Source: Prorocentrum cordatum
Taxonomy: Eukaryota > Sar > Dinophyceae > Prorocentrales > Prorocentraceae
Direction: 5' to 3'
Length of the DNA: 64,000 nucleotides
Assembly: GCA_963575745.1 (NCBI GenBank)
Contig: CAUYUJ010016138.1
Location: 1-64,000, forward strand
The stretch's first letter is position 1, and each line of letters begins with the position of its first letter. The position numbers were made by a program, and so were the translations under genes. This document shows positions 8,837 through 62,974 of this stretch, piece by piece. The notes beneath the pieces were generated by a model. That model worked only from the letters and a program-made list of their open reading frames with translations. It had not been told where the DNA came from and searched no databases.

Positions 8837-11512
8837 GGTTCGTCGTGCTGGACGGACCCCTGGACCAGGATCTGGGAGAAGCCCGCGAGGTCTTGCAGGA
8901 GGGTGGGTACGACACTGCGGAAAGCGTAGTGCACACCCACCTCCTTGGGGACCGGTGCGCGAGGTCGCGCCGCCTCCTCCTTGCCTGGAGAGACGGGGGG
9001 AACTGGGGGAGCGCCGCACTCGCACTCCTGCGGCGGGGCGAGCGATTGGCCCCACTGAACCTCAGTAGCGCCCTGTTGACGCCCGAGGCGGCCCCTCCGG
9101 AGCTCTGCGTGCAGGAGGAGGAGGGGGGGGCCCACTGGCGCCACTTCAAGGTCCCTGAGAGGGCCGACCGCGGGGAGGGAGGGCGCCCCACCGCCCTCCA
9201 GGCGGCCGGGACCTGGAAGAGCACCCGGGAGTCGGAGGGAGACGTCAGGGTCATCCTTAGCCCGATGAGCAGCGGGCCTGACTACCCACTCTGGCACCCT
9301 GACGAGGTCTCTGGGCACTACCCCGTGCTATTGGAAGACACGCGGGGGGATGGCACCCCTCGGGTGAGGCGCTTCGATCCCAAGGAGGCCCGGCAGATTT
9401 CCGGGGGCCTCCTTCACGATTGGCGGGAGGGAACCCGCGCGGGGGTACCTGGGGAGGTGCTCCTCATGGGTGCCGCCCGCTCCATGCCGCCCGTCTCCGC
9501 GCACCACGCGCTGTGGGCAGCGGCCAGCGCGAGGGAGGGCCTCCTCGCAAAGGGGGCCCGGACAGGGGTGTGCCGAGACCCTGATGACTTCATGGCCGCG
9601 GCCAACGCGACGTGGTTCAGCGCCTGGAAGGCTAACCCCGAGGACTCCCGGACTGCTTACGAGCGGTGGCTCCGAGAGGCCCGCGGGGCCCGGGCTGGAG
9701 GGCCACCCGGAGGGGCCCCGCAGAGCGGAGGTGCAGGCCTGCTGGGCGGCCCCCACTCGGCGGGGCCCGCTCCCCCTTTGCTGGGGCCCCGGGCGCGGGG
9801 GATTGGGCATTCCTTCGCCCCCTCCAGCACCGCCCCCCCGACGGGGGCGACGTGGGCCGAGAGGGGGGAAAGGGGCCCGCGCCTGAGGCGCCTCGCCCAG
9901 GAGGAGGAGGAGGAGGTCATGGGGACGCTCACGGCGGCGCCTCGCGGCCGGAAACCCCAGGCCCAGGCGGAGCCCCAGTGCCCTCTGCTGACGGCGGAGG
10001 GGGAGCAACCTCAGATTGGGCGAGGCCACCTGGCGGACGAGAGGGAGCGCCTACGGGACAGCCTCATCTTCGGGAACCTCGCAAAGGGGGCGCGCACCTC
10101 CTACGCCGTGGCGCGGAGGCAGTGGCGCCTTTTCCTCAAAGCCCGGGGGGGGAGCCCGCTCCTCACGGGGCTGGGGAGGGAGGGCCGGCGGCAGGATGAG
10201 GACGTGCTCCTGGACTGGATCGTCCACCTGGCCCATGTCCAGCATCGCTCGGAGGGGGCGATCCGGGGAAAGCTGATGGCGGTCCGCCACTACCATATCG
10301 CGGCGGGATACCCGGACCCTCTGGAGCTGGCCCCCAGGCTCGCGCTGGCGCTGGGGGGACTACGGAGGATGGGCGCCAAGCAGAACCGGAAGTACCCTGT
10401 CACCATTGAGATGATGCGCTGGCTAAGGGGGAAGTTGGACACCGGGGGGGTAGAAGACGCGGCCGCCTGGGCCGCCCTCGCCACCGCCTTCTTCTTTATG
10501 TTGCGCGACTCCGAGTACCTCGCCGACACCTCCGGGGGTAGGGATTGGGCGGCGGAGCGGGTCCTCTTCGGGGGGGATGTCACCCCGAGGAGGGGGGGCG
10601 CGGTCTGCCCCACCTTCGCGTCCGCGCACGAGGTGGTTAACCCTTGGAAGCAATCAGTAAACCCCCCTCCCCCCCCCCCCCTTCCCCCCTTTATCAGAGG
10701 AAATTATAACGCTTCCGGCACCGGGGCCGGGGCGGAAGCGATATCCCCCGCAGGTCACCAGAGGTCCGCGGCAAGCGTTCGCGCGCATTGGTTCTTTAGG
10801 TAGTCGGCTCGCGTTGCCGCCAGCTTCGGGCCCGGGGGGGGGGGGGGAATTCATTAATTATCTAATTTTATTTTTTTATGTGCTAGCGATATCGCCGGTG
10901 GGCGCCGCCCAAAATAATTATTTATTTTAGTTGCTGTGCTAGCGATATCGCCGGGGGGTTTACTGTTTGCTTCGTAGGGTTATCTACATCAAGGGGGGCA
11001 GGACCGACCAGTGCAATTTCGGATGCTGCCGCAACCACTACGCCACGGGCAACCCCCTTTGCCCTGTCGGAGCCCTCGCCGAGCTGGAGAGGTTGGCGCC
11101 CCAGCGGTGGACCTCGGAGGGAGACCCCCCTCTCTTCCGAGACGGGGATGGGAACCCCATCCGGCGGAAAGACATCACCGACCTCTTGGGCCAGGCGGCG
11201 AAGGCGGTGGGGATGCACCCCTCGCACATCGGGAGCCACTCCCTGAGGATCGGAGGCGCCGCGGCTATGTACCACGCCATGCCAGACCTGGGGCGGCTCA
11301 AGCGGTTCGGGAGGTGGAGGTCGGGCGCCTTCCACGCGTACCTCTGGGAGGCGCACGAACCCTAGAAAGGCCTCTCGGAGGCGATGTCCGCCCATAACTA
11401 CAACCTCACCTCGGGAAGCTCGAACCGCCTGGGGCAGACCCCACCCGAGAAGGAAGGGAGGCGGGTCAAGTTCCGGGAGGAGCCCCCGGAAGAATACCAC
11501 GCGCGCGGCTGA
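8837..11512 (+). pseudogene. Tyrosine recombinase gene, interrupted by a TIR element and one stop
   Basis: The open frame begins after CAG at 8836 (FVVLDGPLDQD), so an upstream exon is likely. The first 390 or so residues are unrecognised. A core-binding-like domain follows (SYAVARRQWRLFLKARG ... YPVTIEMMRWLRGKL). The catalytic set is complete: Arg in MLRDSEYL (10504), Lys in YIKGGRTDQ (10991), His and Arg in HSLR (11237, 11246), Trp in GRWRSG (11315) and the Tyr nucleophile in FHAYLW (11339). Expected role: strand exchange by site-specific recombination, as in DIRS-like or Crypton-like elements, of which dinoflagellate genomes hold many. No reverse transcriptase is visible nearby. The element at 10640-10980 shifts the frame, and removing it gives HEVVIYIKGG. 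An in-frame TAG at 11363 is followed by 48 more open codons to TGA 11510, so the copy is probably damaged unless the element is spliced and the stop is an error. Confidence 0.75.
10640..10980. mobile_element. 341-bp TIR element at a TA site inside the recombinase gene
   Basis: Terminal inverted repeats of 28 bp start ACCCT and end GTAAACCCCCC, with 25 of 28 matching. TA flanks both ends (10638-10639 and 10981-10982). Deleting the element with one TA gives GAG GTG GTT ATC TAC, restoring the recombinase frame exactly. There is no coding capacity. The interior has poly-C and poly-G ends, AT-rich patches and a repeated GTGCTAGCGATATCGCCGG. The TA duplication suggests Tc1/mariner-like mobilisation in trans. 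It could be spliced as an intron. Confidence 0.9.
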
Positions 11513-12200
11513 CCCGGAGGAGCCCCGGCGGGAGCAGCGTTGCCCCCCTGCCGCGCGAGCCCCCTTCCAGCCCCACCCGGTGGCGGGACGGAAAGCTGGG
11601 GAGGGGGGATGCCCGTGGAAGCCATGGCTGGCTGGCCGTAGCATGAGTAAGCGGAGGGGTGTTACCCCCTCACCGTATGCCTGTTTTTCCCGCAAGCAGC
11701 CGGCACCAAGCTTGCGGCCTTGCGAACCCCTCGGGCTCCAATCTGGGGGAGCCCGCTGTTTTTGACGGCGCCCAGTTGATGTAACCCGTGGAAGGCCCCC
11801 CTCCGGGGAGCGGAAGAGCTGCGGTGGGGGCGGTTGGTGCGGTGCTGGATCCGGCGCGCCGCAGTGGTGACCCTGTGCGCCCGGGGAGTTGGCCTTCCGC
11901 AGCCCCGCCCCGCAGTGCCCCCGGAGGGGCGGATTCTGTTTTCCGCAATACTGTTTCTAGTATTCGCGTTACCCTTCTGCAGCTGCAGCTAGTTGCGGTG
12001 CCGCGCTACCGTGATTAGTGCGCTTGGCACCCAGGGTCTTGCGCGGGGTGATGGCGGGCCCGCCTCTCTTTCTCCTCTTCGGCTCCCTGCCCCTCGCCCC
12101 TCCTCTGTCTCATTGGCGGACCCCTAGGGCCATCTTTGTTTGGAGGGAGGGTGGGCGCCGTTAGGGCGATCCCCCTGGGGAGCGGCCCGGGACGGGCGTG
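11513..12200. other. GC-rich 3' flank of the recombinase gene
   Basis: No supported gene. The stretch may be the non-coding end of the recombinase-bearing element; the direct repeats at 12201-12530 follow it. Confidence 0.4.
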
Positions 12201-12530
12201 GGCGGAGAGCCTGCGGCTGTGCTCGCGGTCGTCGCCAAAAATTTGGCTCTCCCTCCTTCTGTTCAGTTAACGGGGCTAGGAGGGGAATATGGTATCGTTT
12301 GGCATGCGCCTAAACGATTTTATTCCCCCTGGCCGTAGTGCTCCGTCGCCCCTCCTCCTCCCTGCTCCCGCAGCTGTTTAGGCTAAGCAGCGCTTTTTCC
12401 ACCTCCCACCCCACAACTCTGTTCTCCCGTCTTTTGGACGGGGCGGAGAGCCTGCGGCTGCGCTCGCGGTCGTCGCCAAAAATTTGGCTCTCCCTCCTTC
12501 TGTTCAGTTAACGGGGCTAGGGGGGGAATA
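12201..12530. repeat. Pair of 89-bp direct repeats, 241 bp apart
   Basis: Copies at 12201-12289 and 12442-12530 are nearly identical: they start GGCGGAGAGCCTGCGGCTG, pass through CCAAAAATTTGGCTCTCCC and end GGGGAATA. Each contains GGAGAGCC and GGCTCTCC, an 8-bp inverted pair. Their place about 700 bp after the recombinase suggests terminal or subterminal repeats of its element, which is inference. Confidence 0.9.
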
Positions 12531-30056: not shown

Positions 30057-30222
30057 TACAGTGCCGTTTTTAATACATGCTCCGCGTGCGGACCGTGCAT
30101 TAGAAATAAAGGGTTGATTAACCCATACAAGGACGAGCGTATGTGCTAATTCACTCATACATTAATCGTGCATGAAAAATCCGATATGATTAAAACTCCG
30201 ATGTATTAAAAACTGCACTGTA
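30057..30222. mobile_element. 166-bp MITE with Tc1-like ends (TA-CAGTG)
   Basis: The left end TACAGTGCCGTTTTTAATAC (30057-30078, 22 nt) is matched by the reverse complement of 30201-30222 at 21 positions. TA plus CAGTG at both tips is the pattern of Tc1/mariner-type elements with TA target duplication. The interior is AT-rich against GC-rich flanks and non-coding. It sits between likely gene A exons, so probably in an intron. Confidence 0.85.
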
Positions 30223-37071: not shown

Positions 37072-37247
37072 GGGCTGCCGAGGGCTCCCACATCGAACCA
37101 TCAGGTGAGATGTCCATCGTTGGCCCCTGAACCCAAGCTGGTCATGGAGCTGGCTGGTAATGATGCGTGGGTCGGAATGGGCCCCAACGTGATGCGAGTG
37201 GCCATCTGCCCCCATCGCAGTGGCCCCCGTCGCCATCACCCTGCATG
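37072..37247 (-). CDS. Possible exon of unknown gene
   Basis: The minus strand, after a CAG, reads [40 protein letters not shown] and [18 protein letters not shown]. It is open with a sensible codon pattern but isolated. Confidence 0.4.
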
Positions 37248-37254
37248 AGTCGAC

Positions 37255-38285
37255 GCGCCTGACTTGGAACGGGGTCAGGCGCCCGCGAAACATGTGAAAG
37301 CCGCTGCACCGACAATTGAACTGATTATCTACACCGCTGCACCGACAATTGAATCTGATTATCTACACTGAATGGGCGACCACACCCCACATCCCCCACC
37401 AGCCCACCTACCCCATGCCACCCTCACCGATCCCCCCCCAGAACTGACGCTGGGATCTTCGGCGCGCATGGGTGGGAACGTCGCCGCACAGACCGTAGGT
37501 GGCACGATGCCCTTGATATATTTCTGCGCACCTGAGTGGGAACGGCTGCACCCGCACTGACCAATGCTGTTTCGGCGCGCCTGGGTGGGAACAGAGTCAG
37601 GCGCGTCGCCCCATCACCGCCCTAGCTTGGCGCCCCTCATCGTTCTCCCCCCCCGCCGCCCCCACGGCGCATCGCATGTGATCTCCGATCCGTTGCAGCG
37701 ACGGGCGTATTGATGTGCGACCATTCATGGGCGACCAAGGACCCCCTCCCCATGTCTCTCCACCCCACCCCGCAGATCGTCCTCATAGATGTCATCCCAG
37801 AACTGACCCTGAATATGTCGGTGCGCCTGAGTGGGAACGGCTGCCAAGCTGGCCCTATATGTTTCGGCGCGCCTGGGCGGATACCTCGCCATCGCTCGGA
37901 CGTCCATTCCCCGTGCGTTGCTCGGTTTCGTGAGCGCTCTTGCTTCGCAAGATGATCCAAGCTGCTCTTCGATGGCCCTCGCCGAAAAGACAATGGCCGA
38001 TTCACACGTCCGAGCGATGCCGAGATACGTCGGTGCCTTTGGGCGGGAACGGTGGCTGTGATGGCACTGACTTTGTCGGCGCGCCTGTGGGAAACTGTGA
38101 TGGCCGTATCGCCCCGCCCTTGCCCCCTCGTCATCCCGCCCCCGAACGCCCGAAACACAGACCGATGGCGCCCTCGGACGCCGCCAACCGCGCACCGCAA
38201 AAGCACACTGACCATATGAGAAATCCGAATGCGCACAGAAGACGCCCTGGTCTCAGACGTTTCGGCTCGCTTAGTTGGGAGCAGG
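37255..38285 (+). repeat. Dispersed repeat: CGGCGCGCCTG-x-GTGGGAACG
   Basis: About nine diverged copies, for example near 37459, 37525, 37572, 37819, 37863, 38030, 38078 and 38262. Two carry a longer shared lead-in (CCAGAACTGACGCTG at about 37439; CCAGAACTGACCCTG at about 37798). A tandem pair of a 34-bp unit containing GCTGCACCGACAATTGAA lies at about 37301-37368. No gene in this interval is supported. Confidence 0.8.
37891..38018. mobile_element. MITE family copy 1, ends ATCGCTCGG...CCGAGCGAT
   Basis: It starts ATCGCTCGGACGT and ends ACGTCCGAGCGAT, an exact 13-bp inverted pair. It shares the interior (TTCGGTTTCGTG-like, GATGATCCAAGCTGCTC) with 49861-49980. No coding capacity. Length 128 bp. 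Confidence 0.82.
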
Positions 38286-55115: not shown

Positions 55116-55425
55116 CCCCGGCGCGGGGGGGGCGGGCGCGGCGGGCGGGGGGGCCGAAAAAGAAGGGGAAGGGGCGGTGGAGGGGCGGGCGGGCGCGGCG
55201 GGGTGGGCGGAGGCGGCGGAGGATGATTTCAGGGGTGTCCCAGGGAAATAGTGAGGAACGCGGGTTTTAACACTGGCGCGGTCGCAGCGCGCAGGGCCGC
55301 CCCCCGCGCAGGCCTCCGCGCGGGGCGCCCACCGCGAGAAGCCGCCGGCCGCGCCCGCGGTGCTGCTCGGTGCGGCGGCGTGCGCCGCCGCCAGCATCGC
55401 GCGGCCGCGCACGCGGCGAACGCGC

Positions 55426-56451
55426 ATGCGACTGGCACCCCGCGCGGAGATGGAGGCGCATGCCATGGCGAACGCCACGGACCGGTCCGAGGCGAATCCT
55501 GGGAAGGTGGTGCAGATGGCACAAGATGTTGGCCTGAAGCTCGACGTTAAGCCCTGGGAGTTCCTCTCCTCAATCGCGAAGGACGCAGCGCGCAGCTGGT
55601 TCATCAAGCGAGCGGAGGATCGCGGTATCCAGTGGACTGAGAGCGTGCAGCTGAAGAGCAGTCGCCAGGCGGAGCTGGACCGCCTGTTCGAGCAGGTGCG
55701 CGATCCCGAGCTGCAGTACCCGGCCTACTACACCCAGCCTTTCCACGGCTACGACGACGGCAACCTCAGCTGGAAGGCCGCGCACGAGCTGGAGGCCGCC
55801 ACGCAATCGATGTGCCTCGGCTATTACCAGGCCGAGACGACGTGGGAGGAGGCACAGGAGAGGTTCCGCGGCTCCGCTCGCGTGGCAATCGCGGACAGGT
55901 GGCGCCAGGCACAGGGCGTGGCGGAAGCAGTTTCGGCACCGCCGCCCACGAGGCTCCTCGACGTAGGCTGCAGCGGCGGCTTCTCGACGCGGCAGATGGC
56001 GGACACGTTTCCGGGCGTTCGGGCCACGGGGCTCGACCTGAGCCCTTACTATCTGGCCACGGCAAAGAGCACGTACCCAGATCTGGAGTTTACCCACGGC
56101 CTCGCGGAGGCCACAGGGTTTGAGAGTGGACTGTTTGACATGGTGACGTTCAACTTCCTCTTACACGAGCTACCTCGCGAGGTCAGCATCGAGGCTCTCA
56201 GGGAAGCATACCGGGTGCTCGCGCCAGGTGGGGTGATTGCGGTGTTGGATGTCGACCCGATGAGGCTGCTGGAGCTGCCACCATTCCGCCGCTGGGCCTT
56301 CCAAGTGACGGAGCCGTGGTGCAAAGACGGCGAGTATTATGCTCTTAATGTTGGTGAGGAGTTGCAGAAGCTGGGGTTCGTCGATGTGGTTTCCACCTCG
56401 AACGATCCAGTGAACTCCCTCGTGCTCGCGACGAAGACGAAAGTCTCGTGA
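55426..56451 (+). CDS. SAM-dependent class I methyltransferase
   Basis: First in-frame ATG at 55426 gives 341 residues; the frame is open from 55254, and the upstream codons (VLLGAAACAAASIARPRTRR) could be a targeting sequence, so the true start may lie in an earlier exon. The N-terminal part (PWEFLSSIAKDAARSWFIKR ... YPAYYTQPFHGYDDGNLSW) resembles cyanobacterial and algal proteins of this class. The Rossmann core has motif I LLDVGCSGGFST (from residue 177), the acidic ribose-binding loop TGLDLS (Asp204), FDMVTFNFLLHEL (from 237) and LAPGGVIAVLDVDP (from about 265). Stop TGA at 56449. No frame break: the one clearly intact enzyme gene in the window. Substrate unknown; a plastid location is possible but unproven. 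Confidence 0.9.
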   Translation: MRLAPRAEMEAHAMANATDRSEANPGKVVQMAQDVGLKLDVKPWEFLSSIAKDAARSWFIKRAEDRGIQWTESVQLKSSRQAELDRLFEQVRDPELQYPAYYTQPFHGYDDGNLSWKAAHELEAATQSMCLGYYQAETTWEEAQERFRGSARVAIADRWRQAQGVAEAVSAPPPTRLLDVGCSGGFSTRQMADTFPGVRATGLDLSPYYLATAKSTYPDLEFTHGLAEATGFESGLFDMVTFNFLLHELPREVSIEALREAYRVLAPGGVIAVLDVDPMRLLELPPFRRWAFQVTEPWCKDGEYYALNVGEELQKLGFVDVVSTSNDPVNSLVLATKTKVS

Positions 56452-62773: not shown

Positions 62774-62974
62774 GGGGGAGCGTAAGACCCGGGTTTGCGA
62801 GGACTCGGGTTCGCCATCGTTTTTTGACGACCGCGACTCGGATTTTGACGAGTAGTAGTTTCGTGGGATGTCTGCAGCGGGAGGCCTCGTCAAAATGCAG
62901 GCTCGGCCTCGTCATTTTGTTGACGACCTCGTCGGGGATTTCCGAGTCCCCTGTACCCGGGTCTTACGTCCCCC
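62774..62974. mobile_element. 201-bp foldback element, ends GGGGG-CGTAAGACCCGGGT
   Basis: The left end GGGGGAGCGTAAGACCCGGG and the right end (reverse complement GGGGGACGTAAGACCCGGGT) differ by one indel. GGACTCGG follows inside both arms. The interior has repeated TTTTGACGA and CCTCGTC words. No coding capacity. Confidence 0.85.

What the first reader, a model, noticed from the sequence alone, without database searches (positions are those of the whole stretch)
10638..10982. TIR element splits a recombinase gene and its removal restores the frame exactly
28-bp TIRs, TA on both sides, and perfect codon restoration (GAG GTG GTT ATC TAC) show a single clean insertion. The host gene is otherwise open on both sides, so either the insertion is very recent or the element is spliced out as an intron. 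It would then be an intron-making transposon caught in a selfish host.
Basis: partly seen in the sequence, partly recalled or inferred. Interest (0 to 1): 0.87.

Follow-up and report, generated by a model that had tools for sequence, protein, structure and literature searches.

The report
Recent small transposon in dead retroelement
A short, hitch-hiking DNA transposon landed recently in one damaged copy of a much-repeated, probably retrotransposon-type element of a marine alga; this looks like ordinary transposon nesting, with nothing found to show that it behaves as an intron.

Summary
A 341-bp element (10640-10980) with 28-bp terminal inverted repeats (25/28) and TA on both sides splits a probable tyrosine-recombinase frame; leaving out 343 bp restores the frame. 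The organism's assembly (4.13 Gb dinoflagellate, very probably Prorocentrum cordatum) shows what it is. The element is an internally deleted form of a high-copy, non-autonomous TIR/TA family (140 exact matches to an end pattern; 20 of 28 paired members about 1.5 or 1.73 kb); the 341-bp junction was found at two places. The host is one of 40 scored copies (69 candidates) 96-98% alike; 39 of 39 others lack the element, 38 with exactly one TA. The window's host copy is damaged: cut off at 8839 where six of six long relatives run on, with a nonsense codon shared by one relative, and with 16 replacement to 4 silent private changes. None of the six excisions that give back the empty site uses a GT/GC/GA-AG pair, though 36 other in-frame canonical pairs exist. 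So: a clean, recent insertion of a TA-type miniature transposon. The intron reading has no positive support, but no transcripts could be examined.

The parts
10640..10980 (+). 341-bp non-autonomous TIR element, an internal-deletion form of a family with many members of about 1.5 and 1.73 kb
10638..10639 (.). TA target site, left copy
   Evidence: empty sites
10981..10982 (.). TA target site, right copy
   Evidence: empty sites
10640..10667 (+). left terminal inverted repeat (25 of 28 matching)
10953..10980 (-). right terminal inverted repeat
10770..10771 (.). internal deletion junction: longer family members carry further sequence here; whole junction found at two places (40 scored of 318 candidates)
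8839..10639 (+). host element, part before the insertion; homology to six of six long relatives starts at 8839 (5' end missing)
10983..11512 (+). host recombinase frame after the insertion, with a sub-threshold Phage_integrase match; TGA at 11510-11512 is also present in 26 of 29 relatives
11363..11365 (+). TAG nonsense codon; in 29 relatives CAG 26, TAG 1 (L060), AAG 1, NNN 1
12200..12289 (+). 90-bp direct repeat near the 3' end of the host element, first copy
12441..12530 (+). 90-bp direct repeat, second copy; homology to relatives reaches 12530 in L074 and L076

Best explanation
A miniature, non-autonomous DNA transposon of a TA-target family was moved by a transposase made elsewhere in the genome into a TA inside one copy of a high-copy element that encodes a probable tyrosine recombinase and is probably a retroelement. 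The TA was duplicated. The frame is restored on paper because removing an element plus one target copy always gives back the empty site. Shown: element ends, family, TA target, empty sites, host family, missing 5' end, nonsense codon. Inferred: cut-and-paste by a Tc1/mariner-type transposase, the retroelement nature of the host, and that the insert is simply retained in any transcript. Not known: whether the 5' end was lost before or after the insertion.
For: 28 of 36 family members have TA on the left, 32 of 40 on the right, 24 of 36 on both. 140 exact matches to a pattern of the ends with its TA in the assembly, 0 for the reversed control pattern. 39 of 39 host relatives lack the element: 29 of 29 and 10 of 10; 38 have a single TA. 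The host copy starts at 8839 while 6 of 6 long relatives go on upstream. TAG at 11363 against CAG in 26 of 29. Private changes 16 replacement, 4 silent, no sign of constraint (counts printed before that script stopped on an error). In relative L072 a single frame of 1624 codons runs from the upstream polyprotein through this site without an intron.
Against: No transposase was found: the one 2.38-kb member scanned (L087) has no Pfam match, so the superfamily rests on the TA target alone. The other 341-bp copy (L002) has no TA at its ends. The window copy has no frameshift in the compared stretch, while 25 of 29 relatives have at least one indel that is not a multiple of three, so by that measure it is among the least decayed. 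The nonsense codon sits after the likely catalytic tyrosine (motif recalled), so it need not destroy activity. The element has 14 private changes in 329 compared bases, proportionally more than the host stretch, so most must predate this landing or mutation is uneven.
Confidence: 0.92

Rival explanations
1. Introner: the element is removed from transcripts by the spliceosome, using the AG|GG at its right end (10976-10977) and a donor co-opted from the target, as reported for Symbiodinium introners.
For: The right TIR ends in TTTGCTTCGTAG|GG, and 79.7% of P. cordatum acceptors are AGG. P. cordatum introns are reported to be enriched in elements with inverted repeats at both ends. Symbiodinium introners carry the 3' site and co-opt the 5' site from the target copy. 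36 in-frame GT/GC/GA-AG pairs exist in the tested range, 20 of them with AGG, and all 36 keep the local frame open; among them GC-AG|G 10626/10977 would cost 3 residues and GA-AG|G 10647/10977 would add 4; one pair (GC 10600, AG 10942) even removes exactly 343 bases, though it swaps host codons for element sequence.
Against: None of the six excisions that give back the empty site (starts 10635-10640) is GT/GC/GA with AG; nearest are GG-AG and GT-GG. In 24 family members the bases at -5/-4 are GT, GC or GA in 7 (4.5 if all bases were equally likely; not tested further), and frames across the joined flanks are not in clear excess (16 of 24 against 14.5 expected). The host copy is damaged. A spliced intron would be lost whenever a retroelement copied itself through RNA (established principle, not tested).
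Confidence: 0.05
2. Amoebophrya-like non-canonical intron: the 5-base direct repeat GGTTA and the 28-base inverted repeat form a hairpin that brings the exons together, and splicing is precise without canonical sites.
For: The geometry (inverted repeats near the ends, direct repeat of 3-5 bases at the borders) meets the published pattern (the same search pattern was used for P. cordatum). The RNA strand folds strongly, z = -7.16.
Against: A TIR transposon with a target duplication has this geometry anyway and would be expected to fold. Three of the five repeated bases (GGT) come from a match of the target with the element end. No transcript evidence; the host copy is damaged.
Confidence: 0.02
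3. piggyBac-type element with a TTAA target (the left side reads TTAA|CCCT).
For: Left junction TTAACCCT and a TIR beginning CCCT; the piggyBac target and TIR start are recalled, from no call.
Against: The right side and 38 of 39 empty sites read TTAT, and other family members have varied bases outside TA.
Confidence: 0.01

Closest known systems
Miniature inverted-repeat elements of the Tc1/mariner (TA-target) kind, such as Submariner (PMC4495683; passages seen)
   Same: Short, no evident coding capacity, TIRs, TA target duplication, paralogous empty sites, presence inside coding frames
   Different: No transposase-bearing partner identified here, so the superfamily is not proven; the host is an element of an alga instead of a giant virus
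Introners of dinoflagellates (PMC9860276, PMC10666404, PMC11453091; passages and one section seen)
   Same: Non-autonomous TIR elements in dinoflagellates; TIR ending in AG|GG
   Different: No evidence of splicing here; no GT/GC/GA-AG pair gives back the empty site; the host copy is not an intact gene
Amoebophrya introner elements (PMC7789003; passages seen)
   Same: Inverted repeats at the ends plus a short direct repeat at the borders
   Different: Those were defined on RNA-seq-supported introns; here none is known
DIRS-type tyrosine-recombinase retroelements of dinoflagellates (PMC5890265; passages seen), for the host
   Same: RT-like motifs (recalled) upstream of a Phage_integrase-like domain; dispersed copies; open frames without introns
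   Different: Recombinase match is below Pfam's cut-off, no Pfam match for the RT-like part; the recombinase appears to share one long frame with the upstream part instead of having its own ORF

Membership tests
TA-target miniature transposon (Tc1/mariner-like MITE) | terminal inverted repeats | tested here: met
   25 of 28 bases; same ends in the family
TA-target miniature transposon (Tc1/mariner-like MITE) | TA target duplication | tested here: met
   Empty sites in 38 of 39 relatives show one TA; TA on both sides in 24 of 36 family members
TA-target miniature transposon (Tc1/mariner-like MITE) | short and without coding capacity | tested here: met
   341 bp; of frames of at least 80 codons one lies wholly inside the element, 89 codons
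TA-target miniature transposon (Tc1/mariner-like MITE) | mobilised by a DDE/D transposase of a partner with the same ends | tested here: inconclusive
   One longer member (2.38 kb, L087) scanned in one strand and frame with stops as X, no Pfam match; no genome search for a transposase was made
Introner | spliced as an intron in transcripts | not testable with these tools
   No RNA data held
Introner | canonical sites whose use gives back the empty-site sequence (the common case in the literature) | tested here: not met
   No GT/GC/GA-AG pair among the six positions that restore it; other in-frame canonical pairs exist
Introner | many copies in introns of genes | tested here: inconclusive
   No annotation at hand; frame-continuity proxy 16 of 24 against 14.5 expected, up to 19 in 200 re-pairings
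Amoebophrya-type introner element | inverted repeats 8-20 nt and direct repeats 3-5 nt at the borders of a confirmed intron | tested here: inconclusive
   Repeats present; intron status not testable
piggyBac | TTAA target (recalled) | tested here: not met
   Empty sites read TTAT
DIRS-type retroelement (host) | tyrosine recombinase | tested here: inconclusive
   PF00589 E = 0.0024, 18.1 bits against a cut-off of 27.1; 15.8 bits in relative L047
DIRS-type retroelement (host) | reverse transcriptase and RNase H in the same element | tested here: inconclusive
   Motifs seen by eye in P0003 (motifs recalled); no Pfam or PDB match
DIRS-type retroelement (host) | split or inverted terminal repeats | tested here: inconclusive
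   Only a pair of 90-bp direct repeats near the 3' end was seen; full ends were not delimited

The most novel reading that the evidence does not exclude
The element is removed from RNA precisely, through the GGTTA repeat and the TIR hairpin, by a non-canonical route such as proposed for Amoebophrya, so that even damaged copies of the host element give transcripts without it. The host family would then show insertion, splicing and, in relative L069 (an extra TA exactly at the same site), possibly DNA excision of a family member.
Probability: 0.03. Interest if true: 0.6.

Novelty: new member of a known kind. Interest (0 to 1): 0.15.

Why it matters
Mostly as a caution: frame restoration at a TIR insertion is geometry and says nothing about splicing. 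The case also offers a good natural control set, dozens of 96-98% identical copies with the empty site in one genome. If splicing were shown here, it would be an intron-forming element inside another selfish element and would make the Amoebophrya-type mechanism testable in a cultured alga.

Tried and rejected
Splicing: enumerated donor-acceptor pairs, folded the RNA, looked at the bases before the element and at frame continuity in 24 members. Nothing clearly favours it; the 36 in-frame canonical pairs leave it open.

piggyBac: rejected by the empty sites. A TTA target (Harbinger-like, recalled) is possible on the window alone but makes the ends asymmetric; TA fits the family better.

Published gene models as evidence for splicing: rejected. 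The P. cordatum proteins P0001 and P0002 leave out stretches that are open in the window. P0002 is listed on a contig of 142,396 bases, the length of C20393, the contig of L060; one stretch that P0002 leaves out covers a 5-base insertion in L060, so the model appears to bridge a frameshift.

Structure prediction of P0003 (2 sequences): mean pLDDT 30, not used. No Pfam match for P0001, P0002 or P0003 or for the L072 frame, no PDB match for P0002, P0003, the L072 frame or the downstream window piece. A viral-contig scan with the TIR pattern found nothing; the tool says that records of the window's own genome may be left out there. The seven paper searches were about introners, tyrosine recombinases, MITEs and splicing of transposons; I did not look for this family by name in any repeat library, so I make no claim that it is unpublished.

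Dropped rows: six of 29 relatives (L043, L044, L052, L054, L058, L063) were left out because they align along only part of the stretch; L044 and L058 were left out of the indel list (27 of 29 used), 16 of 40 copies were left out of the target and frame tests (left end not in view, or no TA on both sides); only 25 of 27 members had their frames listed.

Odds: after re-checking against the report (one canonical pair of exactly 343 bases had been overlooked) I moved the best explanation from 0.93 to 0.92 and the introner rival from 0.04 to 0.05.

Full report
Observation. The element is 10640-10980, 341 bp, flanked by TA on both sides. Its ends match as inverted repeats at 25 of the first 28 bases. 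A pattern made from these ends occurs in the window only there, with 0.00 expected by shuffling. Leaving out 343 bp restores the frame of the interrupted gene exactly. The frame has a stop after the insertion, at 11363-11365.

Organism. The annotated relatives of the host gene that were found, P0001 to P0003, are from Prorocentrum cordatum. The window lies in an assembly of 4.13 Gb and 21,875 contigs. One contig fetched from it, C20393, is 142,396 bases long, the length given for the contig that encodes P0002. I take the organism to be P. cordatum; this is inference.

The element's family. A genome search with the element gave 41 matches from 40 scored of 486 candidates: itself, one other near-full copy (C19332, 92%), 38 right-hand ends (from position 131 on) and one left-hand end. 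Flanks were read for 40 copies (loci); 36 show the left end; 28 of 36 have TA on the left, 32 of 40 on the right, 24 of 36 on both. An end pattern with its TA has 140 exact matches in the assembly and 0 for the reversed control; the first 100 places are listed. Among these 100, 28 facing pairs have lengths from 151 to 2,383 bp, 20 of them 1,485-1,506 or 1,713-1,734 bp. The 341-bp form lacks about 1.15 kb of the middle of a 1.5-kb member. A query across that junction (91 bases, 40 scored of 318 candidates) finds it whole at two places, the window and C19332; the next matches cover 42 bases. Of 27 members of 1.4-1.8 kb, 25 had their frames listed; the longest is 167 codons. So this is a non-autonomous TA-target family, and the window holds a miniature of it. 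The other 341-bp copy has no TA at its ends.

The host. The 340 bases before the insertion match 40 scored of 69 candidates, the window itself and 39 others at 96-98%. Of these 39, 29 of 29 and 10 of 10 lack the element. 38 have exactly one TA there; L069 has one extra TA. This is direct evidence of an insertion at TA in this copy.

The host copy is damaged. In 6 of 6 relatives read over about 10 kb, similarity to the window starts at 8839 and the relatives continue upstream in a sequence that the window does not have; 5 of the 6 carry matches over the full length of P0003 there, L076 only its end. P0003 bears reverse transcriptase and RNase H motifs as I recall them, but no Pfam or PDB match supports this. 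Residues 1-915 of P0002 have no significant counterpart in the window. Whether the 5' end was lost before or after the insertion is not known. The codon at 11363 is CAG in 26 of 29 relatives, TAG in L060, AAG in one and NNN in one. L060 is 100% identical to the window at 11200-11514 but 96-99% before, so the shared nonsense codon may be inherited or exchanged, and the order of nonsense and insertion is not fixed. Changes private to the window copy, counted at positions where at least 90% of 22 relatives agree, with L060 set apart (6 of 29 dropped), are 16 replacement, 4 silent, 0 nonsense; L060's own are 14 and 8; shared by the two only are 4 replacement and the nonsense. I read this as lack of constraint; no formal test was made. 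Against this, the window copy has no frameshift in the stretch, while 25 of 29 relatives have at least one indel that is not a multiple of three.

Age. 20 private changes over 2,331 bases of unfiltered length suggest, roughly, under 1% of change on the host copy's own branch. The element has 14 private changes in 329 compared bases, L002 has 6; most of the 14 must be older than this insertion, or mutation is uneven.

Splicing. P. cordatum introns are annotated with donors GC 51.4%, GT 24.7%, GA 23.8% and with AGG acceptors in 79.7% (passages). Six excision positions (starts 10635-10640) give back the empty site; none has GT/GC/GA with AG, and GG-AG (10635-10977) and GT-GG (10636-10978) come nearest. 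In the tested range 36 in-frame canonical pairs exist, 20 with AGG, and all keep the local frame open but change the protein; one of them (10600/10942) removes exactly 343 bases while swapping host codons for element sequence, and GC-AG|G 10626/10977 would cost three residues. Such pairs are to be expected with three permitted donors, but no control was run for their number. In 24 family members the bases at -5/-4 are GT, GC or GA in 7; joined flanks keep a frame of at least 120 codons in 16 of 24, against 14.5 expected when flanks are re-paired, with a maximum of 19 in 200 re-pairings. In relative L072 one frame of 1624 codons runs from the upstream polyprotein through the site, with no intron; it continues about 265 bases beyond, in a shifted frame because of the extra TA. 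An intron in an element that copies itself through RNA would be lost at the next copy; this is established principle, not tested. None of this excludes splicing; no transcripts were available.

Comparison. In geometry the insertion also meets the published search pattern for introner elements, inverted repeats of 8-20 and direct repeats of 3-5 bases near the borders, but a TIR transposon that duplicates its target can meet that pattern too, and it was applied there to known introns. It matches a TA-target miniature transposon such as Submariner in the features tested and met above; the transposase is unknown.

Verdict. A recent, ordinary nested insertion; the frame restoration is geometric. 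The intron reading remains possible at a few percent.

Noticed in passing
L069 (G000:C19011:642199-642538, minus): One relative of the host has an extra TA exactly at the insertion site (GGTTA-TA-TCTAC). It could be an excision footprint of a family member or a chance 2-base duplication; 37 distinct small indels were seen over about 2.3 kb in 27 relatives, so a chance hit at this very place is of the order of 2%.
   Followed up: partly
window 30057-30222: A second short inverted-repeat pair (21 of 23) beginning TACAGTGCC, which could be another TA-target miniature element.
   Followed up: no
window 37882-38027, 37245-37614, 62775-62974: Further imperfect inverted-repeat pairs with arms of 24, 23 and 22 bases; the longest control arm is 22.
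   Followed up: no
P0001, P0002 (annotated P. cordatum proteins): Gene models of host relatives leave out stretches that are open in the window; in P0002 one such stretch covers a 5-base insertion in L060, so some annotated introns in this species may be bridges over frameshifts in damaged elements.
   Followed up: partly
L088 (G000:C9879:364730-364884): A 151-bp member of the element family with TA on both sides, another and even shorter deletion form.
   Followed up: no
window 10879-10954: A 20-base direct repeat (TGTGCTAGCGATATCGCCGG) inside the right part of the element, at 10879 and 10935.
   Followed up: no
window 55255-56451: Frame with a clear methyltransferase domain (Methyltransf_25, E = 1.3e-17).
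   Followed up: no
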